Source: Pseudaquabacterium terrae (lineage in GTDB: Bacteria; Pseudomonadota; Gammaproteobacteria; Burkholderiales; Burkholderiaceae_C). Taken from it: a stretch of DNA of 64,000 nucleotides. Position 1 is the first letter of the stretch; every line of letters starts with the position of its first letter. The translations under genes and the position numbers were made by a program. The DNA lies in NCBI RefSeq assembly GCF_013266755.1, contig NZ_JABRWJ010000008.1, positions 62,001-126,000 of the forward strand, read 5' to 3'. Below the pieces are notes generated by a model. It ran no database searches. It saw only the letters and a list, made by a program, of their open reading frames with translations, and had not been told where the DNA came from. Shown here piece after piece: positions 39,494-64,000 of this stretch.

Positions 39494-41026
39494 TTACGAC
39501 TCACGCCAACGCCTGCCTTCCAGGTCCAGCACGACCCGCCGATCACTTGCCACGTGGCTCTCCGAGCCTTCCGTAAGCGTTGCCACGATCCCGCCGGATA
39601 CCTCGATCTTCTGCGCCGGTCGAAGTTGCGCCCTGTGCTTGTAGATCCATCCCGGCCCGGGCCCGTCGATGGGCAGCCGCTCGATCCGGAAGTCATGCAG
39701 GTCGAGTCGGTACACCGGCGTCGAGCCGAACTCGCGCCGGCCCTGATATCCCAGCGCCCCGATCAGGATGATCGTGTCGCCGACCAGCGTCGCCGTGTGG
39801 AAGTCGGTCGGTGCGAAGACGTCTTCGGGATAACCGTAGATGTCGACGTGGCCGTCCGGGTGGTGCACGAACACGTCGTTGTAGATGCAGAAGTCGGGAT
39901 CGTAGGAGTCTTCGTGCTCGCCGGCGATCTGCACGATGCGGCCATCGGGCAGCCAGGTGATCGACTGGCCGAAGCGCCTGGCGCACCACACCGGCGGCCG
40001 GCTGAGGTCTCGTCCCGGCTCGAAGCGCTGGCTGGCCTCGTAGCCGCTGACGCCAGCGCGAATCATCGCCAGCCAGAACGGTTCGTCGATCTGCTCCGGA
40101 TTGCGTTTGCCCCGGCGCGGCAGGCGGGCGCGCTCGAAGTGCGTCTGCGTGACGCCATCCAGGGCGTCGGGATCGGGCTCGCGCGGGAGGCCGAGCAGTT
40201 CGCGCCGCGACTCGTCCGACAGGTGGGCCGGATCGGCGCCGGCTTTCAGCAGGCGCAGCGTGTCCACGGCATGGAGGGTAGCGCTCAGCGCCGTGCCGCC
40301 GCCGTTGCGCGCGCGGTCGACTTCGGCGCCGACGTCGAGCAGCAGCGCCAGGCCTTCGCTGTGGCCATGTTCTGCCGCCTCGATCAAGGCGGTGGCGCCG
40401 AACTCGTCCGTCTGCTCGGCGTCCTGGCCGCCTTGCAGCAGCCAGTGCAGCATCATCGTCCGGTGGCATTGCACGGCGTAGAAAAGCGGCGGCTGGCCGC
40501 AGCGGCCGCGGGCATTCATGTCGGCGCCTTGCTCGCCCAGCCAACGCGCCTTGTCAACATCCCCGGTCTGAATCGCCACCAGCCACGCGGTGCGTGACCA
40601 CCGGTCGCGGTCCTCCAGAGCGGCACCGTCACGCACCAGCGCCTGCACATCGGCCAGGGTACCGAGCGCCGCGGCCTTGATCAGCGGCGTCCAGCCGAGC
40701 TGCGATTCGTCCGCGCCCGCTTCCAGCAGCAGGCGCACGGCGTCGAAGCGGCCGATGCGCGACAACACGCGCAGCGCGCTCTCCTGGTAGCTGCTGATGT
40801 CGTTCAAGGCGGCGCCGCGTTCGACCAGCAGGCGCAGCAGGGACTGCAGCCGCTCGTCGCGCATGACATCGCGGCCGTGCACTGCATGGAGCAGGGCGCT
40901 GTAGCCGTGCTCGTCGTTGTCGGGCAGGGCCTGGCCTGCATCGAGCAGCGCTTGCACCTCGGCGGGGTCGCCGCGCCGCAGCGCGTCGATCAGGCGGCGC
41001 TTCGTGTGCTTGGGTTTGCGGGCCAT
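39494..41026 (-). CDS. Ankyrin-repeat protein with kelch-like C-terminal half
   Basis: 510 residues, cytosolic. Residues 1-270 hold about seven ankyrin repeats (for example YSALLHAVHGRD, WTPLIKAAALGTLADVQALVRDGA, ATALIEAAEHGHSEGLALLLDVGAEV). From about 330 the protein changes to beta-rich repeats with RFGQSITWLPDGRIVQIAGEHE, YNDVFVHHPDGHVDIYGYP, DFHTATLVGDTIILIGALGYQG and TPVYRLDLHDFRIERLP, like blades of a kelch propeller. Both halves are protein-binding scaffolds; the partner is unknown. Start ATG 41026; the open frame upstream is low-complexity. Confidence 0.8.
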   Translation of the reverse strand: MARKPKHTKRRLIDALRRGDPAEVQALLDAGQALPDNDEHGYSALLHAVHGRDVMRDERLQSLLRLLVERGAALNDISSYQESALRVLSRIGRFDAVRLLLEAGADESQLGWTPLIKAAALGTLADVQALVRDGAALEDRDRWSRTAWLVAIQTGDVDKARWLGEQGADMNARGRCGQPPLFYAVQCHRTMMLHWLLQGGQDAEQTDEFGATALIEAAEHGHSEGLALLLDVGAEVDRARNGGGTALSATLHAVDTLRLLKAGADPAHLSDESRRELLGLPREPDPDALDGVTQTHFERARLPRRGKRNPEQIDEPFWLAMIRAGVSGYEASQRFEPGRDLSRPPVWCARRFGQSITWLPDGRIVQIAGEHEDSYDPDFCIYNDVFVHHPDGHVDIYGYPEDVFAPTDFHTATLVGDTIILIGALGYQGRREFGSTPVYRLDLHDFRIERLPIDGPGPGWIYKHRAQLRPAQKIEVSGGIVATLTEGSESHVASDRRVVLDLEGRRWRES

Positions 41027-41355
41027 GGGCGCAATCCTCGACAGGGCAGGTCCTCGTCCGTGGCACGGACGCCCCCTGAGAGACGCCCCCTTAGAATTGC
41101 GCCCCTTCCCAAGACAAGCTGAACCGTGACATTGGACAAGAGAACCGCGGAGGGGGCGAGCCCCGACCCGACGACAAGGCAAGCACCGAGACGCAACAGG
41201 GCACGACGTGGCGCCACGGCACCGGAGCCCGCAACGTTCAGGACGGTGTTGATCCCGTCGGTTGGCTGGCCCACGGAAGGAGCGGCCGTCGCGCCCTCCA
41301 AGCGGTCGACCAGGCGCTGAGCGCGCGGCGGACGCCGCGCAGGGCGGAACGAGGC
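41027..41355. other. Intergenic region with no recognisable gene
   Basis: Both strands have short open frames (for example plus 41126-41320 and minus 40990-41301) but neither shows a Shine-Dalgarno or a protein pattern I recognise. The stretch separates two minus-strand genes and has a C/G-rich repetitive look near 41070-41105 (cgccccct, cgccccc, cgcccct). It may be an old insertion scar; nothing firmer can be said. Confidence 0.4.
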
Positions 41356-42063
41356 TCACCGGCGGGATGGGCGGGCCGACGTTACCGCCTCGGTGTCGAC
41401 GACCAGTGGAAAGTGATCGCTCAGCGCACACCACTGCGGCTCGGCAGCAATGCGGACCTCCAGTCGATGCTGCGCCCAGGCGCGCGGAACGAAGCAGAAG
41501 TCGATGTGAAACGGACGCTCGGCCTTGCGCAGGAAATGATGCGTCGCATGCGGCTCGTCGCCGAACGCCACGGCATTGAACGCGTGGTAAGCGCTGACGA
41601 GACCGGCGTCCTGCAGCAACGAGAAGCCATTCGTCCACCACTTGATGCGCTGCGTCGGCTTGTCGAACGCGGGACTGCCGTTGAAGTCTCCGGCGACCAC
41701 GGCCGGACCCCGGCGCAGCAGGCCGGCATACGCTGACAAGCCGTTCATGAAGGCCCGGGTGTAGCTCGGCGCAGGCCAGGTCCAGACGGCGAGCAGATTG
41801 AAGCTGACGGGACCGCTGACGCGCACCGGCACGACGCAGTTCGGCAGATCGGCGACCTTCAACCGCTTCAACCGGTGCGGGCCGAAGGACCTGACCTGAA
41901 TGCCCAGACGCGAGGCATTGGACGGGAACCAGAGCAACTGGTCTGACTCCGCACTCGGCGCGAGCGCTTCGGCAATCACCGCGATGTCCGGCTGAAGCGC
42001 TTCGAGCGCCGACATCTTGCGCGGGATCGGACCCCTGCAGCAGTTCCAGGCGACGATGCGCAT
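41356..42063 (-). CDS. Endonuclease/exonuclease/phosphatase family protein
   Basis: 235 residues. EEP-fold motifs in order: RIVAWNCCRG (Asn), an early catalytic Glu in IAEAL, VVAGDFNGSPAFD (Asp/Asn), HIDFCFVP and the terminal LSDHFPLVV (Asp-His). These residues make the single-metal active site of DNase I-like nucleases and phosphodiesterases. No signal peptide, so cytosolic. Nucleic-acid or phosphoester substrate not predictable. Confidence 0.88.
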   Translation of the reverse strand: MRIVAWNCCRGPIPRKMSALEALQPDIAVIAEALAPSAESDQLLWFPSNASRLGIQVRSFGPHRLKRLKVADLPNCVVPVRVSGPVSFNLLAVWTWPAPSYTRAFMNGLSAYAGLLRRGPAVVAGDFNGSPAFDKPTQRIKWWTNGFSLLQDAGLVSAYHAFNAVAFGDEPHATHHFLRKAERPFHIDFCFVPRAWAQHRLEVRIAAEPQWCALSDHFPLVVDTEAVTSARPSRR

Positions 42064-52781: not shown

Positions 52782-54536
52782 CTAGTTGCTGACGCTGACC
52801 GTGACGCTGCTGGTGTTGCCGGCAGCGTCGCGCGCTTCGGCGCGCAACGTGTGCGTGCCGGTCGCCACCTTGCGGGTGTTCCAGGTGTAGCTCAGGCTGC
52901 TGCCGGTGCCGGTGGCCTTCAGCGTGCCGTCGATGTAGAGCTTCTGCGTGATGCCGGCGGCGCCGGCGTTGTCGCTGGCGGCCAGCGTGATCTGCACGTT
53001 GCCCAGGACGCGGCTGCCCGCGACCGGGTTGCTGATCGTCACCACCGGCGGCGTCGTATCGGCCACCACCGCATTCGCCACGTTGACCGACAGCGCCGTC
53101 GAGGCCTTGCTGTTGCCGGCGGCGTCGTAGGCGGTCGCGACCAGGCTCTTCATGCCGTTGCTGACGGTCGCGCTGTTCCAGCTGAAGGCGAAGGGCGCGC
53201 TGGTATCGGTGGCGACCAGGCTGCCGTTGACGCGCAGCTCGACCTTCGTGACGCCGACGTTGTCGCTGGCCTGCACGTCGACCGGCACGACGCCGCTGAC
53301 GCTGGCGCTGGCCAGCGGGTTGATGATGCCGATGGTCGGCGCCGTGGTGTCCGGCGCGGGCGTGGCCAGTGCCGCGGCGACTGCCGCAGCGACATTCAGG
53401 CGGCCATGGCCGTAGACCGCGTCGCGGCCGGCCGCCCCCAGGTCGACTGATGAGCTGTAGAGCAGCGCCTCGACCTGGCTGCCGGTCAGCGCGGGGTTGG
53501 CGGCCATCGCCAGCGCGGCGGCGCCGGCGACGATCGGGCTGGCGAACGAGGTGCCGTTCCAGGCACCGTAGCCGCCGGCGCGCGTCGTGGTCCAGATGCC
53601 GGTGCCCGGCGCGGACAACGCGACGAAATTGCCCCAGCTCGAAAAGCTGGACTTGGCGTCGTTCGAGTCGGTGGCCGAGACGGGGATCATCGTCGTCGTC
53701 GGCGCGATCGTTTCGGCGATGTTGTTGTTGCCGGCGCAGACGACCACCAGGCCGCCCTTGTTCTTCATGTACTGCGCTGCGTTCTGAACCGACAGGCTGC
53801 CGGCGACGCCGACGTAGCTGATGTTGGCGACGCGCGCGCCGTTGTCGGCGGCCCAGGTCAGGCCCTGCGCGACGGTGCTCCAGTAGGCGTAGGCGTTCGC
53901 ATCGGCGATGCGTACCGGCATGATCTTCGCGCGCCCGGCGACGGCGGCGACACCGACGGCGTTGTTGGTCGCCGCAGCCGCGGCGCCGGCGACAGCGGTG
54001 CCGTGGCCATGCACGTCGGCGGTGTTGTTGTTGTTGTCGATGAAGTTCCAGCCCGGCACCAGGTTCGCGGCCAGGTCGGCATGCGTGGCGGAGACGCCGC
54101 TGTCGAGGATCGCGATCGTCACGCCCAGGCCCTGCGAGCTGTCCCAGGCCGTCGGCGCGCCGATCTTGTTCAGATGCCAGGCACTGCCGGTGTACGGATC
54201 GTTCACCGCCATCGCCGCGGAGACCTTGCGGTCGAGCTCGGCGAACTTCAGGTGCGGGTGGTGCTTCAGCTGGGCTTGCACCGCGGTTTCGGAGGCGTGG
54301 GCCGGCAGGTCGACGATGTGCAGGTCGCTGTTGCCGATGCGGCGCGCCTTGCCGCCGTGCGGCTTGACGGCCTTGTCGAGGTCGTCGGCCGAGAGGCCGG
54401 CACGCGACATCACGAGCAGGCGGCCTTTGGCCCAGTCGGTCGCTTCCTGCGCGGTGGCCGGTCCGCAGAGGGTCAACGCGGCGAGCGCGGCGGCCAGGAG
54501 GGTGGGGAGGGGAGAAGGACGGGAAAACGTGCGCAC
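52782..54536 (-). CDS. Secreted S8 subtilase with C-terminal Ig-like domains
   Basis: About 584 residues. The start is GTG 54536 with AAGGAAG seven bases upstream; the longer frame has no signal, whereas this one begins RTFSRPSPLPTLLAAALAALTLCGPATA. Propeptide, then the catalytic triad Asp (AILDSGVSATH, near 144), His (DVHGHGTAVAG, near 175) and Ser (NGTSFASPIVAG, near 330), with the oxyanion Asn in VCAGNNN. Two bacterial Ig-like domains follow (DTTAPTIGIINP, DTTPPVVTISNP). Extracellular protease. It faces the PEP-CTERM gene, ends 8 bp away, and has its own sigma-54-like element. Confidence 0.9.
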   Translation of the reverse strand: MRTFSRPSPLPTLLAAALAALTLCGPATAQEATDWAKGRLLVMSRAGLSADDLDKAVKPHGGKARRIGNSDLHIVDLPAHASETAVQAQLKHHPHLKFAELDRKVSAAMAVNDPYTGSAWHLNKIGAPTAWDSSQGLGVTIAILDSGVSATHADLAANLVPGWNFIDNNNNTADVHGHGTAVAGAAAAATNNAVGVAAVAGRAKIMPVRIADANAYAYWSTVAQGLTWAADNGARVANISYVGVAGSLSVQNAAQYMKNKGGLVVVCAGNNNIAETIAPTTTMIPVSATDSNDAKSSFSSWGNFVALSAPGTGIWTTTRAGGYGAWNGTSFASPIVAGAAALAMAANPALTGSQVEALLYSSSVDLGAAGRDAVYGHGRLNVAAAVAAALATPAPDTTAPTIGIINPLASASVSGVVPVDVQASDNVGVTKVELRVNGSLVATDTSAPFAFSWNSATVSNGMKSLVATAYDAAGNSKASTALSVNVANAVVADTTPPVVTISNPVAGSRVLGNVQITLAASDNAGAAGITQKLYIDGTLKATGTGSSLSYTWNTRKVATGTHTLRAEARDAAGNTSSVTVSVSN

Positions 54537-54598
54537 AGAGTTACTTCCTTGCCGGGGCGGGCCCAGGCACTCTTTGGCCAAGGGGATGACTTGCAGGC

Positions 54599-54614
54599 TG
54601 CAGAAAGCAGGCCA
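54599..54614 (-). promoter_or_regulatory. Sigma-54-like promoter upstream of the subtilase gene
   Basis: Minus strand TGGCC, 7 nt, TGCA, with GG and GC separated by 10 nt. Start would fall about 50 nt before the GTG. The -24 TGGC and -12 TGCA cores are good; the remainder is variable. Chance matches occur, so support is limited. Confidence 0.3.
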
Positions 54615-54621
54615 GGTCGCG

Positions 54622-54637
54622 GGGCCGTTTACGGCCC
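54622..54637. promoter_or_regulatory. 16-bp palindrome in the subtilase upstream region
   Basis: GGGCCGTTTACGGCCC, palindromic apart from its central TT, just upstream of the sigma-54-like element. It could be an operator or activator site. The remaining bases between 54638 and 54843 hold a short hairpin (CTGCC/GGCAG near 54818) after the hipA stop and nothing else recognised. Confidence 0.35.
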
Positions 54638-54843
54638 GACACAACATCGACTTGGCATCCAGCGATCCGTGAATCTGCGCACGCGAGAAATCCACGGACA
54701 AGCCTCAAGGTTCGGCGCTTCGGGCCGAGCGGCCGCGATTCTGCCCGCCTGCAACTGACGAACGCCGGCTCAGGCGGTCACAAGGCGCGTCGATCTTGTA
54801 AGGACTTGCGACGAGGCTGCCGCTTTATGGCAGTCGCCGCGGC

Positions 54844-56079
54844 CTACGCACCGTGACGCGCGTACGCCAGGCCGATGTCCCACTGCGCCCGCAGATCGTC
54901 GACGAGGCCCGCCGCTACCCGCGCATCGCCGCGCGCGGCGTGCAGCGTCGCGCTCATGGCGTCGGCGATGCGCTCGATCACCTGCTGCGGATGGGCCACC
55001 TGGCAGACCGCCCGGCCGAAACCGAGCAAGGCCTCGGTGTCGGGGTAGGCGCGGCTGCGGTCGCCGCGACGCAGGCGCAGCGCGAGCGTGCGGTCCTCGG
55101 CCAGGAAGCCGCCCGGACGCTCGTAGCGGTAGATCGCCGTGGTCACGACATCGAACAGCGGCGACAGCCAGGGATGCGCCGGGTCGTCGTAGAGCAGGCC
55201 GAAGTTCTTCAGGTGCGCGTCGCCGTTGCGCACCATGATCGACAGCGCCACCTGCTCGAAGAGCCGCTGCAGGTTCTGAATCACGCGGTCGCCGCCGGTC
55301 AGGCGGATCGCCTCGGCCACCGCTTCGTACGAGCCGTGGTACTTGCGGTTCGACAGGCGATCGTGAACGCGCAGGCCCATCAGCGCGGCGATGTCCTCGA
55401 AACCCAGGCGATGGACGGGTCCGTCGCCGCCAAGGTCGAAACGATCGATCAACAACAGGCTTGCGTCGTCGTTCAGCTCGAAGCGCGGCACCGCGATGCC
55501 GGCCGCGGCGGCGGCCGACAGGCAGAGGAACTCGTTCGCCGCCAGTCGCGGGTAGTCGGCGCCTTCGGCCTTGACGATCAGGTCGGGGATCGGGACGGAA
55601 GTGCGCGAGGGCAGCATCAGCTTGGGCTGCACGCCGGCCACGCCGATCGAGCTGCCGAGGTAGGCGTCGACCAGGTCCTCGAACACCGCTCCAGCGCTGC
55701 TGCGCAACAGCTGCTGCCGGTCGACTGCCGCCGTCGCGCGCGCGGGCCGGTCGTCTAACGCATAACCGACGCGGCCGATGCCGTTGTCGCCCATCAGCGC
55801 GAGCAGGTGCATCTTCGTGATGCCGGACTTGCGAAAGCGCTCGTGGATGCGCTGGAACAGGTAACCCTCGGGCAGGTTCATGTCCATCGCCGGAAACAGC
55901 TCGCCGTCGCTGAACTCGATCGCCTCGGGCGGCATGAACAGGCTTACCGCCTGGCGCGCCGGCACCCCTTCGGCGTAGCGGAAGCTGTAGACGCTGTGCT
56001 TGATCAGTTCGCCGACCGGCGTGTTTGCGCTCGATACGCGCAGGCGGGCGATGCGTTCGGGCAGCACGGCGGGCCTCAC
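54844..56079 (-). CDS. hipA: HipA family serine/threonine kinase toxin
   Basis: 411 residues, near the length of E. coli HipA. Couple-HipA N-domain, then the kinase core: VAGVQPKLMLPSR (ATP loop and Ser region), LIVKAEG (Lys), LLLIDRFD, the catalytic loop RNGDAHLKNFGLLYD (HipA-type D..xxN) and the metal-binding SPLFDVV. HipA toxins phosphorylate a translation component such as glutamyl-tRNA synthetase and are held by HipB. Starts at GTG overlapping the hipB stop (GTGA). Confidence 0.9.
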   Translation of the reverse strand: MRPAVLPERIARLRVSSANTPVGELIKHSVYSFRYAEGVPARQAVSLFMPPEAIEFSDGELFPAMDMNLPEGYLFQRIHERFRKSGITKMHLLALMGDNGIGRVGYALDDRPARATAAVDRQQLLRSSAGAVFEDLVDAYLGSSIGVAGVQPKLMLPSRTSVPIPDLIVKAEGADYPRLAANEFLCLSAAAAAGIAVPRFELNDDASLLLIDRFDLGGDGPVHRLGFEDIAALMGLRVHDRLSNRKYHGSYEAVAEAIRLTGGDRVIQNLQRLFEQVALSIMVRNGDAHLKNFGLLYDDPAHPWLSPLFDVVTTAIYRYERPGGFLAEDRTLALRLRRGDRSRAYPDTEALLGFGRAVCQVAHPQQVIERIADAMSATLHAARGDARVAAGLVDDLRAQWDIGLAYARHGA

Positions 56080-56366
56080 TGCGATGCCGGCGGGTCGTCT
56101 TCCGGTGTGTCGAGCTCGGCGAAGTGCGCGCTCATCTCCTGCAGCGTCGGCCGGCCGGCGCGCGGGAGCGATAGGCCATGGCCGAGTGCCGCGAGGATGT
56201 TGAGCAGCGAGCTGACCGAGACGTCTTGCCCGCGCTCGAGCCGGTTCAGCACGTCGCGGCTGCGGCCGCTGTGGCGGGCGATCTCCAGGGTCGATTTGCC
56301 CGACGCACTGCGCAGCGCGCGGATGGCCTCGCCGAGGGCGGTGAGTGAAGTGATGCTGTCCGACAT
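56076..56366 (-). CDS. hipB: HipB-like XRE antitoxin
   Basis: 96 residues. HTH_3 fold (LGEAIRALRSASGKSTLEIARHSGRSRDVLNRLERGQDVSVSSLLNILAALG) with a C-terminal tail (FAELDTPEDDPPASQ) suited to plug the toxin. ATG 56375 is a possible start, but it lies inside the promoter; ATG 56366 is placed just at the predicted transcription start. Represses the operon with HipA. Confidence 0.85.
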   Translation of the reverse strand: MSDSITSLTALGEAIRALRSASGKSTLEIARHSGRSRDVLNRLERGQDVSVSSLLNILAALGHGLSLPRAGRPTLQEMSAHFAELDTPEDDPPASQ

Positions 56367-56374
56367 TCCGGACA
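56357..56374. promoter_or_regulatory. HipB operator (inverted repeat)
   Basis: TGTCCG-ACATTC-CGGACA, perfect 6-bp arms with a 6-nt spacer, abutting the -10 box and covering the start of hipB. The position would block initiation when HipB (HipBA) binds, matching the autoregulation known for HipB proteins. Confidence 0.55.
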
Positions 56375-56402
56375 AACTAGGTCAGAGACCGTCATTTGTC
56401 AA
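56374..56402 (-). promoter_or_regulatory. hipBA promoter with predicted leaderless start
   Basis: Minus strand TTGACA (56402-56397), 17 nt, TAGTTT (56379-56374). Perfect -35, exact spacing, fair -10. The start point would be near 56367, so ATG 56366 would be the first codon of the mRNA. Confidence 0.55.
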
Positions 56403-57232
56403 GTATTCAGGACAGCCGCACCGGCCTGAAAGCGCTCGCGGATCGCAGCAAAGGCCTGCAGGTACTGCGGAAAGCGCTGGTCGCGCCAGGCGATCTTCAG
56501 GGCGTCGCTGATGTAGGCCTCGTTCGGATGGTCGCGGAAGCGCGACACCGACCAGCCCATGCCGAAGGGGTTGTGCGCGACGCTGCGCCAGGGCTGCGTT
56601 GCCAGCAGTAGCGAGGCGGCGCGCTCCATCAGGAACACCTTGCGCTGCGCGCCACCGCCACCCGGGCCGGGGTAGCTGGTCGACGCGGTCAGCGCCGCCT
56701 TCAGGTCGTTGTCCGGGCCTTCGCAGAGGGCGAACATCGCTTCGTTGAGCTTCAGCCACTCGCGCCAGAACGCCGGCCGGGCGACGAAGTAGTTCGAGAA
56801 CACCGTCTGGCGCGAATCCATCACCAGCGCGCGCAGCGGCAGCGGCCGGCCGATGTGGGCGAGGAAAGCTTCGTAGGCGGCGATCAGGCCGGGATCGAAG
56901 GTCTCGCCCTGCTCGAAGACATTCAGGAAGAAGGCGCCCATGTCGGGCTGCGGCGAGAACAGCACGACGTCGGCCTGCGGGGCCGACTCGCGCACGAAGG
57001 CTTGCACCTGCGCGTGCGACAGGCTGGTCTTGTGGCCGAACTTCGGCGAGAAGAAACCGTAGAAGGCGTCGTCGTCGAGCGGCTGGCTCAGCAGGTGGCG
57101 GCGGATCGGCCAGTACTCGTACCAATCCGGGCGCTCATTGCCCAGGTTGTCGAGCAGCGCGTAGCCGGGCTCGAGCTTGTCGAGCGTGGCCGGCGAATAG
57201 GCGATCTGGTAGAGGTGGACGGCAGTCTCCAT
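56399..57232 (-). CDS. Conserved hypothetical protein, 277 aa
   Basis: Begins METAVHLYQIAYSPATLDKLEPGYALLDNLGNERPDWYEYWPIRRHLL, then FYGFFSPKFGHKTSLSHAQV, ADVVLFSPQPDMGAFFLNVFEQGE and RPLPLRALVMDSRQTVFSNYFVARPAFWREWL. Aromatic-rich alpha/beta pattern without signal or membrane segment. The rather conserved-looking opening suggests a specific family, possibly linked to surface carbohydrate, but I do not recognise it. Lies just downstream of the repeat-protein gene and its terminator hairpin. Confidence 0.65.
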   Translation of the reverse strand: METAVHLYQIAYSPATLDKLEPGYALLDNLGNERPDWYEYWPIRRHLLSQPLDDDAFYGFFSPKFGHKTSLSHAQVQAFVRESAPQADVVLFSPQPDMGAFFLNVFEQGETFDPGLIAAYEAFLAHIGRPLPLRALVMDSRQTVFSNYFVARPAFWREWLKLNEAMFALCEGPDNDLKAALTASTSYPGPGGGGAQRKVFLMERAASLLLATQPWRSVAHNPFGMGWSVSRFRDHPNEAYISDALKIAWRDQRFPQYLQAFAAIRERFQAGAAVLNT

Positions 57233-57327: not shown

Positions 57328-60300
57328 TCAGACCAGCGGCAGGGTGCGCAGCAGCTCGTCGTCGAGCGAGGCGCGCTGGGCCGGCATCACCGCTGCGTGG
57401 GCGCTGCCGCCGCTGCCGCCGTTGCTGCCGAGCAGCTCGCCGCTCGGCGCGGACAGCAGCTCGTCGAGCTTCGGCCCGGCGTCACGGCTGAACCAGACGT
57501 CGGCCATCTCGTGCGAGGCACCGTCGGCCGTCGTGTAGCTCGACACCAGGCCGACAGCGTTGCCGTTGTCGACGCGGGCGCTCGCCGCGGCGTCCAGGTT
57601 GAGCCCGGTGATGCCGAGCTCGACCAGTCCCTTCAGCTCGCCCAAGTCGGTCTTGCCGTCGTGGTTGGCATCGACCCACACCTTCAGCTCGCCGAAGTTC
57701 GCGTCGCTGGCGTTGACCACGCCGTCGCCGTTGCTGTCTTCGGCGGCCAGCGCCGCATACCCGTTGCCGGCGCGGTGGCCGTCGGCGAGTTGCGTGCCGG
57801 TGCCGTAGAGCTCGCGGCCATCGTCGATCTTCCCGTTGCCGTCGCGGTCGCGCACCAGCAGGCCGTCGTTGCTGCCGACCCAGCCGAAGCGATCGGCGCG
57901 GCCGGTGCCGGCGACGTCGAAGTGCACGCCGTTGGCCGCCGCCAGCGTCTGCACGCCGTTGCCGTCGAGGTCGAGCACGATCGGCGTGGCGCTCATCAGC
58001 GCGTCGACCTGCGCGTTCGACATCACCTGGATGTCGGCGGCTTCGAAGGCGTTGGCCTGGGCCGTCGTCATCGCCGCGATGTCCGCGGTCTCCAGGCCGG
58101 CGATCTGCGCGGTCTGGAAGGCGACGATCTGCGCCGTCGTCAGGTTGTCGATCTGCGCCGTCGTGAAGGCGGCGATCTGGCTCGTCGTCAGCGCAGCGAA
58201 GTTGGCGGTCGAGATGCCGGCGACCTGGGCGCTCGTGAGCGATCCCCACTGCGAGGTCGACAGCGAGTTCAGGTCGGACGAACCCATCGCATTGAGCTGC
58301 GTGGCGCTGAAGGACGCCAGGCTGGCGGTCGTCAGCGCGGCCAGCTGCGTGGTCGACAGCGCCTCGATCTCGGCGGTGCCGAAGGCGCGGATCTGCGTCG
58401 CGCTGAGCGCGGCGAAGTCGGCCGAGTCCATCGCGGCGATATGGCCGGTGTTGATCGCGACGATCTGCGCGGTCGTCAGGCCGCCGAGCTGCGCGCTGGT
58501 CAGCGCGACGAGCTCATTGGTCGTCAGGGCGTCGATCTGCGCGGTCGAGAAGGCTCGGATCTGCGCCGTGCCCAGGGCCGCCAGGTCAGTGGTTTCGAGG
58601 CTCGCGACCTGCGTCGTGCTCAGGCCGCGGAGCTGCGAGGTGCCGAAGGCGGCGAACTGCGTGGCCGACAGCGCGTTCAGGTCGGCCGTGTCCAGGCTGC
58701 CGAGCTGCGCGGTCGTCAGCGCACGGACCTGGTCGGTCTCCAGCGCGATGAGCTGCGTCGTCGACAGGCCGGCGAGCTGCGTCGTCGTCAGCGCGGCGAT
58801 CTGGCCGGTGCCCAGTGCGGCGAGCGTCGTCGTCGACACGGTCGCGAGATCGGCGGCGCCGAAGCCGCGGATCTGCGCGGAGCTGAGCGCGGCGAACTGC
58901 GCGGTGGACAGCGAATCCATCTGCGTGGTCGACAGCGCATCGAGCTGCGTGGTCGTGAAGCCGCGCATCTGCGCGGTCGTCAGGCCCGCGAGGTCGGCGG
59001 TGTCGAGGTTGGCGATCTGCGTCGTCGACAGGCCGGCGATCTGCGTGGTGCGCAGCGCGCCGTACTGCGAGCTGCTCAGCACGTTGAGGTCGCTGGTGCC
59101 GAAGCTGGCCAGTTGCGCGGTGGTGAACGCGGCGACCTGGCCGGTCGTCAGCGCGACGAGCTGCGTGGTGGTCAGCGAGTCGAGCTGGCTGGTGGTCAGC
59201 GTGGCGATCTGGCTGGTGGTCATGGCCACCAGCGACGAGGTGGCGATCCAGCCGATGTCGGCGGTCTCGATGCCGCGGGTCTGTGCGGTGGTCAGCGCGG
59301 CGATCTGGCCGGTGGCGAAGCCGGCGAGCTGGCTGGTGGTCAGCGCCTCGATCTGCGCGCTGGTGAAGCCGCGCATCTGGGCGGTGCTCAGCGTGACGAG
59401 GTCAGCGGTCTCGAGGTTGGTGACCTGCGTGGTCGTCAGGCGGGCCAGCTGCGAGGTCGACAGCGCGCCGAACTGCGCGCTGGTCAGCGCGTTGAGGTCG
59501 GAGGTGGCCAGGCTGGACAGCTGCGCGGTGGTCAGCGCGCGGATCTGGTCGGTCTCCAGCGCGACGAGCTGGGTGGTGTCCAGCGCGTCGAGCTGCGTGG
59601 TGGTCAGCGCGGCGATCTGCCCGCTGCCCAGCGAGGCCAGCGTGGTGGTGCTGAGCGTGGCGAGGTCGGCGGTGGCGAAGCCGCGGATCTGGCTGCTCGA
59701 CAGCGCGGCGAACTGCCCCGTCGACAGCGCGGCCATCTGGCTGCTGGACAAGGCGTCGAGCTGCGTGGTGGTGAAGCCGCGCAGCTGCGCGGTGGTCAGC
59801 CCGGCCAGGTCGGCGGTGTCGAGGTTGGCCACCTGCGTGGTCGACAGGCCGGCGACCTGCGAGGTCGACAGCGCGGCGAACTGCGCGCTGCCGAGCACGT
59901 TGAGCTCGGCGGTGCCCAGGCTGGCGAGCTGCGCGGTCGTCAGCGCACGGACCTGGTCGGTCTCCAGCGCGACGAGCTGCGTCGTCGTCAGGGCGTCGAA
60001 CTGCGTCGTCGTCAGCGCGGCGATCTGGCCGGTGCTCAGGCCGGCGAGCGTCGTCGTCGACAGCGTCGCGAGGTCGGCGGCGCCGAAGCCGCGGATCTGC
60101 GCGGAGCTGAGCGCGGCGAACTGCGCGGTGGACAGCGAATCCATCTGCGTGGTCGACAGCGCATCGAGCTGCGTGGTCGTGAAGCCGCGCATCTGTGCGG
60201 TCGTCAGGCCCGCGAGGTCGGCGGTGTCGAGGTTGGCGATCTGCGTCGTCGACAGGCCGGCGATCTGCGCGGTGCGCAGCGCGCCGTACTGCGAGCTGCT

Positions 60301-62052
60301 CAGCACGTTGAGGTCGCTGGTGCCGAAGCTGGCCAGTTGCGCGGTGGTGAACGCGGCGACCTGGCCGGTGGTCAGCGCGACGAGCTGCGTGGTGGTCAGC
60401 GAATCGAGCTGGCTGGTGGTCAGCGTGGCGATCTGGCTGGTGGTCATGGCCACCAGCGACGAGGTGGCGATCCAGCCGATGTCGGCGGTCTCGATGCCGC
60501 GGGTCTGCGCGGTGGTCAGCGCGGCGATCTGGCCGGTGGCGAAGCCGGCGAGCTGGCTGGTGGTCAGCGCCTCGATCTGCGCGCTGGTGAAGCCGCGCAT
60601 CTGGGCGGTGCTCAGCGTGACGAGGTCAGCGGTCTCGAGGTTGGTGATCTGCGTGGTCGTCAGGCGGGCCAGCTGCGAGGTCGACAGCGCGCCGAACTGC
60701 GCGCTGGTCAGCGCATTGAGGTCGGAGGTGGCCAGGCTGGACAGCTGCGCGGTGGTGAGGGCGCGGATCTGGTCGGTCTCCAGCGCGACGAGCTGGGTGG
60801 TGTCCAGCGCGTCGAGCTGCGTGGTGGTCAGCGCGGCGATCTGGCCGCTGCCCAGCGAGGCCAGCGTGGTGGTGCTGAGCGTGGCGAGGTCGGCGGTGGC
60901 GAAGCCACGGATCTGGCTGGTCGACAGCGCGGCGAACTGCCCCGTCGACAGCGCGGCCATCTGGCTGCTGGACAAGGCGTCGAGCTGCGTGGTGGTGAAG
61001 CCGCGCAGCTGCGCGGTGGTCAGCCCGGCCAGGTCGGCGGTGTCGAGGTTGGCCACCTGCGTGGTCGACAGGCCGGCGACCTGCGAGGTCGACAGCGCGG
61101 CGAACTGCGCGCTGCCGAGCACGTTGAGCTCGGCGGTGCCCAGGCTGGCGAGTTGCGCGGTCGTCAGCGCCCGGACCTGGTCGGTCTCCAGCGCGACGAG
61201 CTGCGTCGTCGTCAAGGCGTCGAACTGCGTCGTCGTCAGCGCGGCGATCTGGCCGGTGCCCAGTGCGGCGAGCGTCGTCGTCGACAGGCTCGCGAGGTCG
61301 GTGGTGTCGAAGCCGCGGATCTGCGAGGTCGACAGCGCCGCGAACTGCGCCGTCGACAGCGAGGCCATCTGCGACGACGACAGCGCGTCGAGCTGCGTCG
61401 ACGTGAAGCCGCGCACCTGCGCGGTCGACAGCGCCGCCAGGTCGGCGGTTTCGAGGTTCGAGACCTGCGTCGTCGACAGGCTGGCGAGCTGGCTGGTGCG
61501 CATCGCGGCGAACTGCGCCGTCGTCAGCGCATCGAGCGAGCTCGTGCCCAGCGAGGCGAGCTGCACCGTCGACAGCGCGGCGACCTGGTCGGTCTCCAGC
61601 GCGGCCAGCTGCGTCGTCGAGAAGCCGGCGAGCTGCGTCGTCGTCAGCGCGCCGATCTGGCCCGTGCCCAGCGCTGCCAGCGCCGTCGTGCTCAGGGCCG
61701 TGAAGTCGCTGGTCGACAGGCCGCGCAGCTGCGCGCTGGTCAGCGCGGCGAACTGGCTGGTCGACAGCGCCGTCAGCTCGCTGGTGGTCAGCGCGTCGAT
61801 CTGCGTGCTGGTGAAGGCCCGCATCTGCGTCGTCGACAGCACCGCGAGGTCGGTGGTTTCGATCGCCGCGAGCGACGTCGTCGTCAGCGCCGCCAGGCCC
61901 CGAGTCGGGATCGCCGCGAACTGGCCGGTCGTCAGCGCGACGATCTGATCGGTCGCGAACGCTGCCCAGTCCTCCGTCGTCAGCCCGGAAAGCGTCGCGG
62001 TCGACAGGGCGGCGATCTGCGAAGTGGTCAGGTTCGGAATGTTGGTGGCCAT
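57328..62052 (-). CDS. Giant octapeptide-repeat protein with EF-hand-like C-terminus
   Basis: 1,574 residues. Seven N-terminal residues are followed by 168 uninterrupted octads, consensus L-S/T-T-x-Q-I/L-x-A (residues 8-1351), then a C-terminal domain with EF-hand-like calcium loops: IVLDLDGNGVQTL, DRDGNGKIDDGRE, DSNGDGVVNASD and DANHDGKTDLGE. No signal peptide, no Cys in the repeats. Each octad has a Ser/Thr-x-x-Gln helix-capping pattern, so a stacked short-helix solenoid is plausible. AAGGA is eight bases before ATG 62052, and a sigma-28-like promoter lies about 105 nt upstream. It faces away from flhB. A surface-attached or secreted calcium-binding adhesin-like role tied to motility is inferred, not shown. 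Confidence 0.8.
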   Translation of the reverse strand: MATNIPNLTTSQIAALSTATLSGLTTEDWAAFATDQIVALTTGQFAAIPTRGLAALTTTSLAAIETTDLAVLSTTQMRAFTSTQIDALTTSELTALSTSQFAALTSAQLRGLSTSDFTALSTTALAALGTGQIGALTTTQLAGFSTTQLAALETDQVAALSTVQLASLGTSSLDALTTAQFAAMRTSQLASLSTTQVSNLETADLAALSTAQVRGFTSTQLDALSSSQMASLSTAQFAALSTSQIRGFDTTDLASLSTTTLAALGTGQIAALTTTQFDALTTTQLVALETDQVRALTTAQLASLGTAELNVLGSAQFAALSTSQVAGLSTTQVANLDTADLAGLTTAQLRGFTTTQLDALSSSQMAALSTGQFAALSTSQIRGFATADLATLSTTTLASLGSGQIAALTTTQLDALDTTQLVALETDQIRALTTAQLSSLATSDLNALTSAQFGALSTSQLARLTTTQITNLETADLVTLSTAQMRGFTSAQIEALTTSQLAGFATGQIAALTTAQTRGIETADIGWIATSSLVAMTTSQIATLTTSQLDSLTTTQLVALTTGQVAAFTTAQLASFGTSDLNVLSSSQYGALRTAQIAGLSTTQIANLDTADLAGLTTAQMRGFTTTQLDALSTTQMDSLSTAQFAALSSAQIRGFGAADLATLSTTTLAGLSTGQIAALTTTQFDALTTTQLVALETDQVRALTTAQLASLGTAELNVLGSAQFAALSTSQVAGLSTTQVANLDTADLAGLTTAQLRGFTTTQLDALSSSQMAALSTGQFAALSSSQIRGFATADLATLSTTTLASLGSGQIAALTTTQLDALDTTQLVALETDQIRALTTAQLSSLATSDLNALTSAQFGALSTSQLARLTTTQVTNLETADLVTLSTAQMRGFTSAQIEALTTSQLAGFATGQIAALTTAQTRGIETADIGWIATSSLVAMTTSQIATLTTSQLDSLTTTQLVALTTGQVAAFTTAQLASFGTSDLNVLSSSQYGALRTTQIAGLSTTQIANLDTADLAGLTTAQMRGFTTTQLDALSTTQMDSLSTAQFAALSSAQIRGFGAADLATVSTTTLAALGTGQIAALTTTQLAGLSTTQLIALETDQVRALTTAQLGSLDTADLNALSATQFAAFGTSQLRGLSTTQVASLETTDLAALGTAQIRAFSTAQIDALTTNELVALTSAQLGGLTTAQIVAINTGHIAAMDSADFAALSATQIRAFGTAEIEALSTTQLAALTTASLASFSATQLNAMGSSDLNSLSTSQWGSLTSAQVAGISTANFAALTTSQIAAFTTAQIDNLTTAQIVAFQTAQIAGLETADIAAMTTAQANAFEAADIQVMSNAQVDALMSATPIVLDLDGNGVQTLAAANGVHFDVAGTGRADRFGWVGSNDGLLVRDRDGNGKIDDGRELYGTGTQLADGHRAGNGYAALAAEDSNGDGVVNASDANFGELKVWVDANHDGKTDLGELKGLVELGITGLNLDAAASARVDNGNAVGLVSSYTTADGASHEMADVWFSRDAGPKLDELLSAPSGELLGSNGGSGGSAHAAVMPAQRASLDDELLRTLPLV
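58000..62031 (-). repeat. 168 in-frame 24-bp (octapeptide) repeats
   Basis: Coding for residues 8-1351 of the giant protein in exactly 168 units. Above the octad there is a 17-octad super-repeat (136 residues, 408 bp): the octad beginning LSTT(T/A)LA or an equivalent recurs at octads 15, 32, 49, 66, 83 and onwards at the same spacing, and LETADLA-type octads fall at fixed offsets within it. About 9.9 super-repeats fit. Confidence 0.9.
58840..61287 (-). repeat. Tandem duplication of 1,224 bp (51 octads), two copies
   Basis: Copies at 60064-61287 and 58840-60063 are nearly identical: about five residues differ in 408 by my reading. Direct comparison at 59041 with 60265 and at 59761 with 60985 shows the same sequence at a constant offset of 1,224 bp, which is 3 x 408 bp. 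Points to a recent tandem duplication or ongoing gene conversion, and to likely copy-number variation between strains. Confidence 0.85.
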
Positions 62053-62162
62053 CTCGGACGTCCTTTGGCTCGAAATCGTGGTCAGTGATGCGGGTCTTGG
62101 TCTCTAGGGGGCTGGCGGGGAAGCCATTGACGGCTTGCCCTTCCTGCACTTCCTTCGTCCGG

Positions 62163-62190
62163 TTATCGGGCCTGACTTTCTGTAACTTGA
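62163..62190 (-). promoter_or_regulatory. Sigma-28-like promoter of the repeat-protein gene
   Basis: Minus strand TCAA, 16 nt, CCCGATAA (TCAAGTTA at 62190-62183, CCCGATAA at 62170-62163), against TAAA-N15-GCCGATAA. The -10 matches 7 of 8, the -35 3 of 4, spacing one longer than consensus. It shares CTCAAGTT with the elements before flhB and flhA. The remaining 62053-62373 region holds flhB leader sequence with GC-rich inverted repeats (GCCGGC at 62321-62337). Confidence 0.55.
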
Positions 62191-62373: not shown

Positions 62374-63540
62374 ATGGCCGACGCGCAAGACCGCAACCTC
62401 CCAGCCTCAGAACGCAAGATCCGCAAGTCCCGTGAAGACGGGCAGGTGGCGCGTTCGCGCGACCTGGCGCACCTGGCGATGGTGGGCGGGGGTGGGGCGC
62501 TGCTGGTGGCCTTCGCGCCCGCGCTGGCCGGCTGGATGCAGAAGATCCTGGCGTTGGGTCTGCGCTTCGACGCCAAGCTGTTGACGCAACCCGATGTGCT
62601 GACCCACCGCCTCGGCGAACTGGCCGCCGGCTGGCTGCTGGTGCTGCTGGTGATCGGCGGCGTCGGGCTGGCGCTGGCGATCGGCTCGGGCGTCGCCGCC
62701 GGCGGCTGGAACTTCACGATGAAGCCGCTGGCGCCGAAGTTCGACAAGCTCAACCCGCTGACCGGCATCGGCCGCATGTTCTCGGCCGACCACCTGTCGC
62801 AGGTCGGCAAGGCCTGCCTGCTGGCGCTGCTGCTCGGCGTGATCGGCGCTTTCTATCTAAAGGGGCACCTGGCCGAATTTCACGATGCGCTGAGCATGCC
62901 GCTGCCCCAGGCGATGAAGCACACCACGCAGGCGCTGCTCGGCGGGCTGATGCTGCTGGTGATCGCGCTGGTCGTCTTCGCGGCGATCGACGTGCCGCTG
63001 CAGCGCTTCATGCTCCTGAAGCGGCTGAAGATGAGCCACCAGGAGATGAAGCAGGAATACAAGGACGCCGAGGGCAACGTCGAGGTCAAGGCCAAGGTCA
63101 AGGCGCGCATGCGCGAGATGGCCAAGAAGCGCATGCTGGCCGCGGTGCCGAGCGCCGACCTGGTCGTGATGAACCCGACCCACTACGCGGTGGCGCTGAA
63201 GTACGAGGACTCGAAGATGGCCGCGCCGCGCGTCGTCGCCAAGGGCGCCGACCTGGTGGCGATGAAGATCCGCGACATCGCGCGCGAGAACAAGGTGCCG
63301 GTGCTGCAGAGCCCGGCGCTGGCGCGCGCGCTCTACGCCCACACCGAGGTCGACCAGGAAGTGCCGCAGCGCCTCTTCTCGGCCGTCGCCCAGGTGCTGG
63401 CCTACGTCTACCAGCTGCGCGCGGCGCTCGCCGGCCGCGGCAAGATGCCGGCCGACCTGGCGCCGATCGTCGTGCCGCCGGACCTGGATCCGCACAACAA
63501 GCCGGCTACCGGTGCGGCCGACGAGGCCGACGAAGCTTAA
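62374..63540 (+). CDS. flhB: Flagellar type III export protein FlhB
   Basis: 388 residues, inner-membrane component of the flagellar export gate that switches substrate specificity from hook to filament. Cytosolic N-terminus ASERKIRKSREDGQVARSRDL, four membrane segments, cytosolic linker helix (MSHQEMKQEYKDAEG), and the autocleavage site NPTH at Asn267, with the C-terminal domain ending near residue 360 and an acidic tail. Followed after a 63-bp gap by flhA. Confidence 0.96.
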   Translation: MADAQDRNLPASERKIRKSREDGQVARSRDLAHLAMVGGGGALLVAFAPALAGWMQKILALGLRFDAKLLTQPDVLTHRLGELAAGWLLVLLVIGGVGLALAIGSGVAAGGWNFTMKPLAPKFDKLNPLTGIGRMFSADHLSQVGKACLLALLLGVIGAFYLKGHLAEFHDALSMPLPQAMKHTTQALLGGLMLLVIALVVFAAIDVPLQRFMLLKRLKMSHQEMKQEYKDAEGNVEVKAKVKARMREMAKKRMLAAVPSADLVVMNPTHYAVALKYEDSKMAAPRVVAKGADLVAMKIRDIARENKVPVLQSPALARALYAHTEVDQEVPQRLFSAVAQVLAYVYQLRAALAGRGKMPADLAPIVVPPDLDPHNKPATGAADEADEA

Positions 63541-63603: not shown

Positions 63604-64000
63604 ATGAATGCGTTCATGGCTCAACTGCAGTCGCTGATCGGTCCCAAGGCGGGCGTGCTGAAGGCGCTGATGGCGCCGCTGTTCATCGTGATGGTTCTCG
63701 CGATGATGGTGCTGCCGCTGCCGGCCTTCGCGCTCGACCTGTTCTTCACCTTCAACATCGCGCTGGCGCTGATGGTGATGCTGGTGGCCGCCAACATGAT
63801 CAAGCCGCTGGACTTCGCGGCCTTCCCGACCATCCTGCTGGTGACGACGCTGCTGCGCCTGTCGCTGAACGTCGCCTCGACCCGCGTCGTGCTGCTCGAG
63901 GGCCACACCGGCACGGCGGCAGCCGGCAAGGTGATCGAGAGCTTCGGCCACTTCCTGATCGGCGGCAATTTCGCGGTCGGGCTGATCGTCTTCGCGATCC
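63604..64000 (+). CDS. flhA: Flagellar export protein FlhA, N-terminal part
   Basis: Runs off the right edge; about 132 residues are visible. Membrane helices begin VLKALMAPLFIVMVLAMMVLPLPAFALDLFFTFNIALALMVMLVA, followed by the FHIPEP signature region PTILLVTTLLRLSLNVASTRVVLLEGH. FlhA forms the nonameric export gate with FlhB. ATG 63604 is used; ATG 63616 is possible. Confidence 0.95.
   Translation, partial: MNAFMAQLQSLIGPKAGVLKALMAPLFIVMVLAMMVLPLPAFALDLFFTFNIALALMVMLVAANMIKPLDFAAFPTILLVTTLLRLSLNVASTRVVLLEGHTGTAAAGKVIESFGHFLIGGNFAVGLIVFAI

What the first reader, a model, noticed from the sequence alone, without database searches (positions are those of the whole stretch)
57328..62052. Exactly 168 octads, organised as 8 -> 17 -> 51, in one giant protein
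The octapeptide array is gap-free over 1,344 residues and has a strict 17-octad super-period (408 bp), three of which make the 51-octad duplicated unit. Such strict hierarchy suggests a solenoid whose turns hold a fixed number of octads, rather than random low complexity. The EF-hand-like C-terminus gives calcium control of a surface protein. I do not recognise it as a described family.
Basis: seen in the sequence. Interest (0 to 1): 0.85.

Follow-up and report, generated by a model that had tools for sequence, protein, structure and literature searches.

The report
Flagella-linked secreted giant octad screw
The giant repeat protein is real and belongs to an already named repeat family; its repeats appear to wind as a screw with about 3.4 eight-residue units per turn, and its gene carries a flagellar-type promoter and goes with a sugar-adding enzyme and a one-step secretion machine, which suggests a sugar-coated surface or adhesion protein made together with the flagellum.

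Summary
In detail: 168 octads in one register (residues 9-1352 of 1574), a 17-octad super-period and a recent 51-octad duplication. The claim that it is no described family fails: Pfam PF20080 (ALTTAQ repeat), E=3.7e-292, and a C-terminal SPM domain like that of FrpC (solved, E about 1e-36). New here: (1) across the family octads recur with a period of 3.40-3.45 octads, measurable from lags shorter than any super-repeat. 17 octads is therefore 5 turns; other relatives use units such as 24, 27, 34 or 51, mostly close to whole turns (58 of 63 proteins; 37 of 40 counting one per named locus). (2) AlphaFold2 folds 51 octads as 51 short helices (pLDDT 94). (3) A FliA-type promoter box lies 110 bases upstream, and such boxes are enriched before relatives. 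(4) The genome's only GT41 glycosyltransferase sits in a type I secretion operon, orthologous to operons near octad genes elsewhere. (5) The SPM keeps calcium ligands but lacks the Asp of the self-cleavage site, here and in the 86 relatives parsed. Best reading: a flagellum-co-regulated, type-I-secreted, O-glycosylated alpha-screw at the cell surface. Secretion, glycosylation and adhesion are inferred; the model's twist could not be measured.

The parts
57328..62052 (-). Octad (ALTTAQ) protein gene, 1574 aa
   Evidence: Pfam PF20080 E=3.7e-292, 57 stretches
57997..62028 (-). 168 gap-free octads, residues 9-1352
58693..61284 (-). Span of the recent 51-octad duplication (octads 32-88 and 83-139)
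   Evidence: 97.8% DNA identity at lag 51
57481..57984 (-). SPM domain, residues 1357-1524; positions aligned with FrpC Ca ligands include D1361, D1363, N1365, D1396, D1402, E1414, D1439, D1461, E1472
   Evidence: PDB 6sjw/6sjx by phmmer, E about 1e-36; ligand map
57985..57987 (-). Thr1356, where FrpC has the cleaved Asp414
   Evidence: Asp414-Pro415 from PMC7078468 (passages)
57331..57480 (-). C-terminal tail of 50 residues after the SPM, possible type I secretion signal
   Evidence: inference from position only (sequence); not tested
62163..62190 (-). FliA (sigma-28) type promoter box, 110 bases before the ATG
   Evidence: (1 match, 0.02 expected in window)
56399..57232 (-). 277-aa companion gene downstream; relatives near octad genes in 8 loci (7 distinct contigs)
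   Evidence: no Pfam, PDB-sequence or significant fold match
62374..63540 (+). flhB, divergent neighbour
   Evidence: TIGR00328; also in other octad loci
63604..64000 (+). flhA, start of the gene
   Evidence: PF00771 / TIGR01398 over the part in the window

Best explanation
A late-flagellar (FliA-controlled) surface protein. The octad array folds into an alpha-screw with one short helix per octad and about 3.4 octads (27 residues) per turn, so a 17-octad unit is five turns and particular side chains recur on fixed faces along the rod. In the cytosol a GT41 enzyme adds sugars to Ser/Thr of the array; a type I machine (ABC, HlyD, outer membrane channel) exports it; extracellular calcium folds the SPM, which here acts as a folding cap and not as a protease, because the Asp of the cleaved bond is absent. 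The product probably serves attachment or surface coating of motile cells. Shown by computation: register, periodicity, predicted fold, SPM homology, promoter box, operon orthology. Inferred: export by that machine, glycosylation and its sites, folding order, the adhesion or coat role.
For: Turn: pooled octad autocorrelation gives 3.425 octads from lags 2-16 and 3.413 from lags 2-60 (172 runs); lags 2-11 alone give 3.40, and a bootstrap over 74 proteins gives 3.41-3.45 for lags 2-16; named loci plus window alone give 3.407, 3.431 and 3.413. 58 of 63 dominant super-periods lie within 0.1 turn of a whole number, 37 of 40 with one protein per named locus. 61 of 86 runs of 51+ octads have their spectral maximum at 0.285-0.303 per octad. 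Fold: 51 helices, pLDDT 94.2. Promoter: box in the window; the motif TCAAG-N12-16-CCGATAA hits the genome 12 times against 0 for the reversed control, among them before fliS, fliD and a cheY-like gene; score 13+ in 30 of 94 octad genes against 10 of 704 neighbours, 23 of 54 against 6 of 557 with one gene per named locus. Export and sugar: the own genome's only GT41 gene lies beside ABC and HlyD genes whose closest relatives near octad genes are 54-66% identical over the longer alignments, against 23-38% for the genome's other T1SS; GT41 at 35%+ identity to the own one in 20 of 78 named octad loci; GT41 in 24 of 27 octad-positive and 26 of 53 octad-negative genomes.
Against: In the window alone the 5/17 harmonic is only slightly the strongest (221 against 199 and 195). 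25 of 86 long runs peak elsewhere, 15 of them at 0.206-0.209, about 5/24. Units of 38, 48 and 54 octads (5 of 63 proteins) miss whole turns by more than 0.1. The GT41 operon is about 80 kb from the gene here; 58 of 78 named loci show no such GT41 in the fetched flanks, and where it is present it is the immediate neighbour in 9 of 20. GT41 and FliA associations across genomes may reflect ancestry. 2 of 27 octad-positive genomes gave no FliA over the cut-off. The -35 form TCAAGTTT was chosen after seeing the window's site; the spacer is 12, not 11, and the form TAAAG-N12-16-CCGATAA has no match in the genome. Three of the 12 motif hits precede no gene I can tie to motility or signalling. No secretion signal was tested, the TolC partner in this genome was not identified, and one search shows no RTX-repeat family.
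Confidence: 0.55

Rival explanations
1. An unglycosylated T1SS-exported solenoid; the GT41 acts on flagellin or another protein.
For: GT41 also occurs in 26 of 53 octad-negative genomes; the own GT41 lies about 5 kb from motAB, cheY-like and cheZ genes.
Against: GT41 at 35%+ identity to the own one in 20 of 78 named octad loci, immediate neighbour of the octad gene in 9 of these; 402 of 1344 array residues are Ser or Thr.
Confidence: 0.25
2. The SPM is an active clip-and-link module as in FrpC.
For: Clear SPM homology with the aligned Ca ligands largely kept.
Against: Thr precedes the Pro here; among 90 SPMs following octad arrays the residue is T in 55, S in 31, not parsed in 4 and D in 0; D was parsed in 5 of 20 SPM regions classed as without octads, and 2 more unparsed rows there show D-P.
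Confidence: 0.05
3. Neutral repeat expansion: the 17-octad period only reflects duplication of units of arbitrary length.
For: Near-identical 51-octad copies show recent duplication.
Against: The same period is measured from lags 2-11, below the dominant units; 8 of 11 different super-periods, held by 58 of 63 proteins, lie within 0.1 turn of whole turns.
Confidence: 0.07
4. Ice-nucleation-like beta-solenoid (octapeptide hierarchy, recalled).
For: Similar kind of hierarchy (recalled).
Against: No ice-nucleation family among the Pfam matches up to E=1; predicted all-helical.
Confidence: 0.01

Closest known systems
Pfam PF20080, ALTTAQ repeat
   Same: Same octad family, E=3.7e-292, 57 stretches
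   Different: Model is 38 positions long; no paper found for 'ALTTAQ' or 'PF20080' in the library searched, so I found no description of turn, promoter or partners
HeliScrew4, PDB 9zem (120 aa)
   Same: Octads of similar kind, phmmer E=3.2e-14 to residues 77-185
   Different: Seen as name and sequence alignment only; structure not examined; not among the 50 of 466 Foldseek rows shown; no paper for 'HeliScrew'
FrpC self-processing module (PDB 6sjw, 6sjx)
   Same: Residues 1357-1524, E about 1e-36, aligned Ca ligands largely kept
   Different: No Asp before the Pro; an octad array precedes it
FrhA of Vibrio cholerae (flagellum-regulated RTX adhesin)
   Same: Large adhesin whose expression fell without FliA in strain O395 (PMC6890996, passages)
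   Different: No sequence relation tested; FrhA has an N-terminal retention module cut by LapG, here octads start at residue 9
Mesothelin
   Same: Most frequent among the best Foldseek matches, probability up to 1.00, E=3.4e-4
   Different: TM scores of full-length chains 0.20-0.34; no homology claimed
HMW1C / GT41 adhesin glycosylation
   Same: GT41 enzyme paired with a large exported adhesin (PMC3012730, search listing and start of abstract)
   Different: HMW1 is Asn-linked and two-partner secreted; the window array has 1 N-X-S/T sequon

Membership tests
PF20080 ALTTAQ repeat | Score over the curated cut-off | tested here: met
   942.1 bits against 26.4
FrpC-type SPM | SPM by sequence | tested here: met
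[quoted passage not shown]
   Thr1356-Pro1357
FrpC-type SPM | Residues of the four Ca sites | tested here: met
   15 of 16 mapped positions are D, N or E; the 16th, FrpC 511, reads A in both chains because my numbering is off by one there; binding not measured
Type I secreted proteins | Cognate ABC-HlyD-TolC genes | tested here: inconclusive
   orthologous ABC and HlyD about 80 kb away; own TolC not identified
Type I secreted proteins | C-terminal secretion signal | not tested
   no call
FliA regulon | Promoter of the TAAAGTTT-N11-GCCGATAA type | tested here: met
   TCAAGTTA-N12-CCCGATAA: 6 + 7 of 16 bases against the published form, 14 with the TCAAGTTT variant, spacer 12; consensus from PMC7286023 (passages)
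FliA regulon | Expression depends on fliA | not testable with these tools
   needs experiment
LapA-type retained adhesins | N-terminal retention module before the repeats | tested here: not met
   octads begin at residue 9; judged by lack of room, no model searched
Ice nucleation proteins | Ice-nucleation octapeptide family | tested here: not met
   absent from Pfam matches up to E=1; model all-helical
HMW1C N-glycosylated adhesins | Several N-X-S/T sequons | tested here: not met
   1 in the 1344-residue array

The most novel reading that the evidence does not exclude
The octads act like residues of one giant helix: a rod with 17 octads in 5 turns, hence faces that do not drift, with acidic and Arg positions kept on different faces and dense Ser/Thr for sugars. 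Such rods, up to 6,100 residues in relatives, would be secreted by a FliA-controlled GT41-T1SS module and assemble laterally into a glycosylated coat or fibre: a class of flagellum-co-regulated surface filament whose length evolves mostly in whole turns.
Probability: 0.3. Interest if true: 0.8.

Novelty: new variant of a known kind. Interest (0 to 1): 0.62.

Why it matters
It turns an apparently low-complexity giant into a protein with a measurable geometric rule: super-repeat length tracks whole turns of the solenoid, read from sequence alone and testable on one structure. It also ties a Pfam family for which I found no paper to flagellar control, GT41 glycosylation and type I secretion, so its role can be tested in an ordinary freshwater or soil bacterium.

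Tried and rejected
Leucine-rich repeats: many weak PDB hits, rejected because the model is all-helical. Other Pfam hits to the array (LRR_EndoS, DUF4351, Phage_TAC_7) have no stretch that passes on its own and are taken as compositional. Ice nucleation: as above. The 277-aa neighbour as a glycosyltransferase: not supported (no Pfam or PDB sequence match; model pLDDT 67.9, 194 fold matches with E up to 10 but none at 0.001); left as unknown. Neighbour cluster 0 mixes GT41 with other transferases, so counts use only matches at 35%+ identity to the own GT41. Opposed acidic and basic faces: 169 degrees between Asp4 and Arg6 in the window but 97 (Asp4-Arg6) and 126 (acid-base) in the family, so only segregation is claimed, and octad phases leave out side-chain direction. 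A FliA pattern with TAAAG gave no match in the own genome. With the published -35 form alone, score 13+ drops to 12 of 54 octad loci against 2 of 557 other genes.

Full report
WHAT IS THERE. The gene at 57328-62052 (minus) codes for 1574 residues. From residue 9 to 1352 there are 168 octads in one register. Lag-17 octad identity is 0.603 against a median of 0.385, and no lag exceeded 0.461 in 1000 shuffles of octad order. A 51-octad unit has been duplicated recently (octads 32-88 and 83-139, 97.8% DNA identity).

WHAT FAMILY. Pfam PF20080, ALTTAQ repeat, matches with E=3.7e-292. [quoted passage not shown] A 120-residue PDB molecule called HeliScrew4 (9zem) has a similar octad; I saw its name and alignment only. 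No paper in the searched library holds 'ALTTAQ', 'HeliScrew' or 'PF20080'.

RELATIVES. PF20080 matches in 27 of 100 genomes sampled from the window's family, 25 over the curated cut-off. A scan of named genomes found 102 relatives and kept 78 loci, from Aquabacterium humicola (69% in the best segment), Ideonella, Pelomonas, Roseateles, Paucibacter, Leptothrix, Sphaerotilus, Rubrivivax and others. One relative reaches 6104 residues (L048). The same-genus genome G160 has a contig of 74,700 bases, the length of a record of Rubrivivax pictus W35, which suggests the window's genus; this is inference.

WHY 17. Among 106 proteins the mean excess identity over octad lags is largest at 17, then 34, 24, 10 and 7. 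These are near-multiples of 3.4. Pooled over 172 gap-free runs, lags 2-16 give a period of 3.425 octads and lags 2-60 give 3.413; the spread of the curve is ten times the largest of 100 shuffled sets, and 100 of 172 runs have their best frequency between 0.27 and 0.32. Lags 2-11 alone give 3.40, and a bootstrap over 74 proteins for lags 2-16 gives 3.41-3.45. With that value, the dominant super-periods of 63 proteins (17 in 19, 24 in 15, 34 in 7, 27 in 7, 51 in 6, 44, 38 and 48 in 2 each, 41, 54 and 58 in 1 each) lie within 0.1 turn of a whole number in 58. Because some contigs are present under two names, I repeated this on named loci plus the window: periods 3.407, 3.431 and 3.413, and 37 of 40 loci within 0.1 turn, one protein each. 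Of the 24 position-residue features ranked highest in the band around 0.294, 21 also have their overall maximum at 0.290-0.294; the ranking selects for this; Asp at positions 3 and 4 lead. Against: 25 of 86 long runs peak elsewhere, and in the window alone the fifth harmonic of 17 is only slightly ahead. Proteins are related, so counts are not independent events. Sequence alone cannot tell +106 from -106 degrees, nor add whole turns.

FOLD. AlphaFold2 on 51 octads of the window with 42 further octad segments gives pLDDT 94.2, pTM 0.77, and 51 helices, one per octad, from octad position 2 to 5-7. Foldseek's best solved matches are mesothelin chains, with low TM scores.

SPM. Of 16 FrpC ligand positions that I mapped, 15 carry D, N or E here; at the remaining one my numbering is off by one. 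The residue before the Pro is Thr here; among 90 SPMs after octad arrays it is T in 55, S in 31, not parsed in 4 and D in none. D was parsed in 5 of 20 SPM regions that my filter classed as without octads, and two more unparsed rows show D-P; two of those 20, L073 and L106, are in fact octad proteins. FrpC cuts Asp414-Pro415 (PMC7078468, passages). Cleavage is therefore not expected; calcium-driven folding is.

FLAGELLAR CONTROL. The gene is divergent from flhB, with flhA next; flhB was found in 7 octad loci, of which L066 and L090 are one contig. TCAAGTTACAGAAAGTCAGGCCCGATAA lies at 62163-62190 (minus), 110 bases before the ATG. The FliA consensus in PMC7286023 is TAAAGTTT-N11-GCCGATAA (passages); the window's box differs at three bases and has a spacer of 12. 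TCAAGTT-N10-14-CCGATAA occurs once in 8.04 Mb, here. TCAAG-N12-16-CCGATAA occurs 12 times against 0 for the reversed control: this gene, fliS, fliD, a cheY-like gene, four GGDEF genes, one HD-domain gene, and three others without a link to motility. The TAAAG version has no match. Upstream of octad genes a score of 13 or more is found in 30 of 94, against 10 of 704 other genes in the same loci, the two best of those ten being in the flhB cluster (Fisher 5e-22). With one gene per named locus it is 23 of 54 against 6 of 557, and with the published consensus alone 12 of 54 against 2 of 557; relatives are not independent. The FliA family is over its cut-off in 25 of 27 octad-positive and 33 of 53 octad-negative genomes. 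FrhA of Vibrio cholerae is a precedent for a flagellum-regulated large adhesin (PMC6890996, passages).

SUGAR AND EXPORT. Neighbour genes of octad loci include GT41 with TPR, ABC transporter, HlyD, outer membrane efflux protein, sugar aminotransferase and further glycosyltransferases. The own genome has one GT41 gene, followed by ABC and HlyD genes, together G000:C55:38144-43364, about 80 kb from the octad gene and about 5 kb after motA, motB, a cheY-like gene and cheZ. Compared with genes in octad loci, the two best GT41 matches are 60% and 73% identical (the latter over 385 residues; the next are 47-49%), the long ABC matches 62-66% and eight HlyD 54-59%, while the other T1SS of the genome gives 23-38%. 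A GT41 at 35%+ identity is in 20 of 78 named loci, next to the octad gene in 9 of them. Read by eye from the rows shown, both cut lists, 15 of 27 octad-positive genomes have a GT41 within about 40 kb of an octad match. GT41 is in 24 of 27 octad-positive against 26 of 53 octad-negative genomes (Fisher 5e-4). Adhesins glycosylated by such enzymes are known (HMW1, PMC3012730, listing and start of abstract) but on Asn; with one sequon and 402 Ser/Thr in 1344 residues O-linkage is the likelier choice here.

VERDICT. The repeat is real and its family is named. The new content is the 3.4-octad period, the FliA box, the GT41-T1SS link and the Asp-less SPM. Secretion, glycosylation and adhesin or coat function are inference.

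Noticed in passing
window 57397-62088 and 57836-61948 (+): Open frames of 1563 and 1370 residues run antisense to the octad gene; they probably follow from its GC-rich 24-base repeat and are unlikely to be genes.
   Followed up: no
window 54844-56375 (-): A HipA-like protein with a small HTH partner (HipBA-type pair) lies downstream of the 277-aa gene.
   Followed up: partly
window 56399-57232 (-): The 277-aa companion has many invariant residues among 8 aligned sequences and no known family or fold.
   Followed up: yes
window 52782-54701 (-): Subtilisin-like S8 protease with Ig-like domains; relatives lie in octad loci L068 and L072.
   Followed up: partly
window 39494-41641 (-): 715-aa protein with matches to named Dot/Icm ankyrin effector models far below their cut-offs; probably only shared ankyrin repeats.
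   Followed up: no
   Followed up: partly
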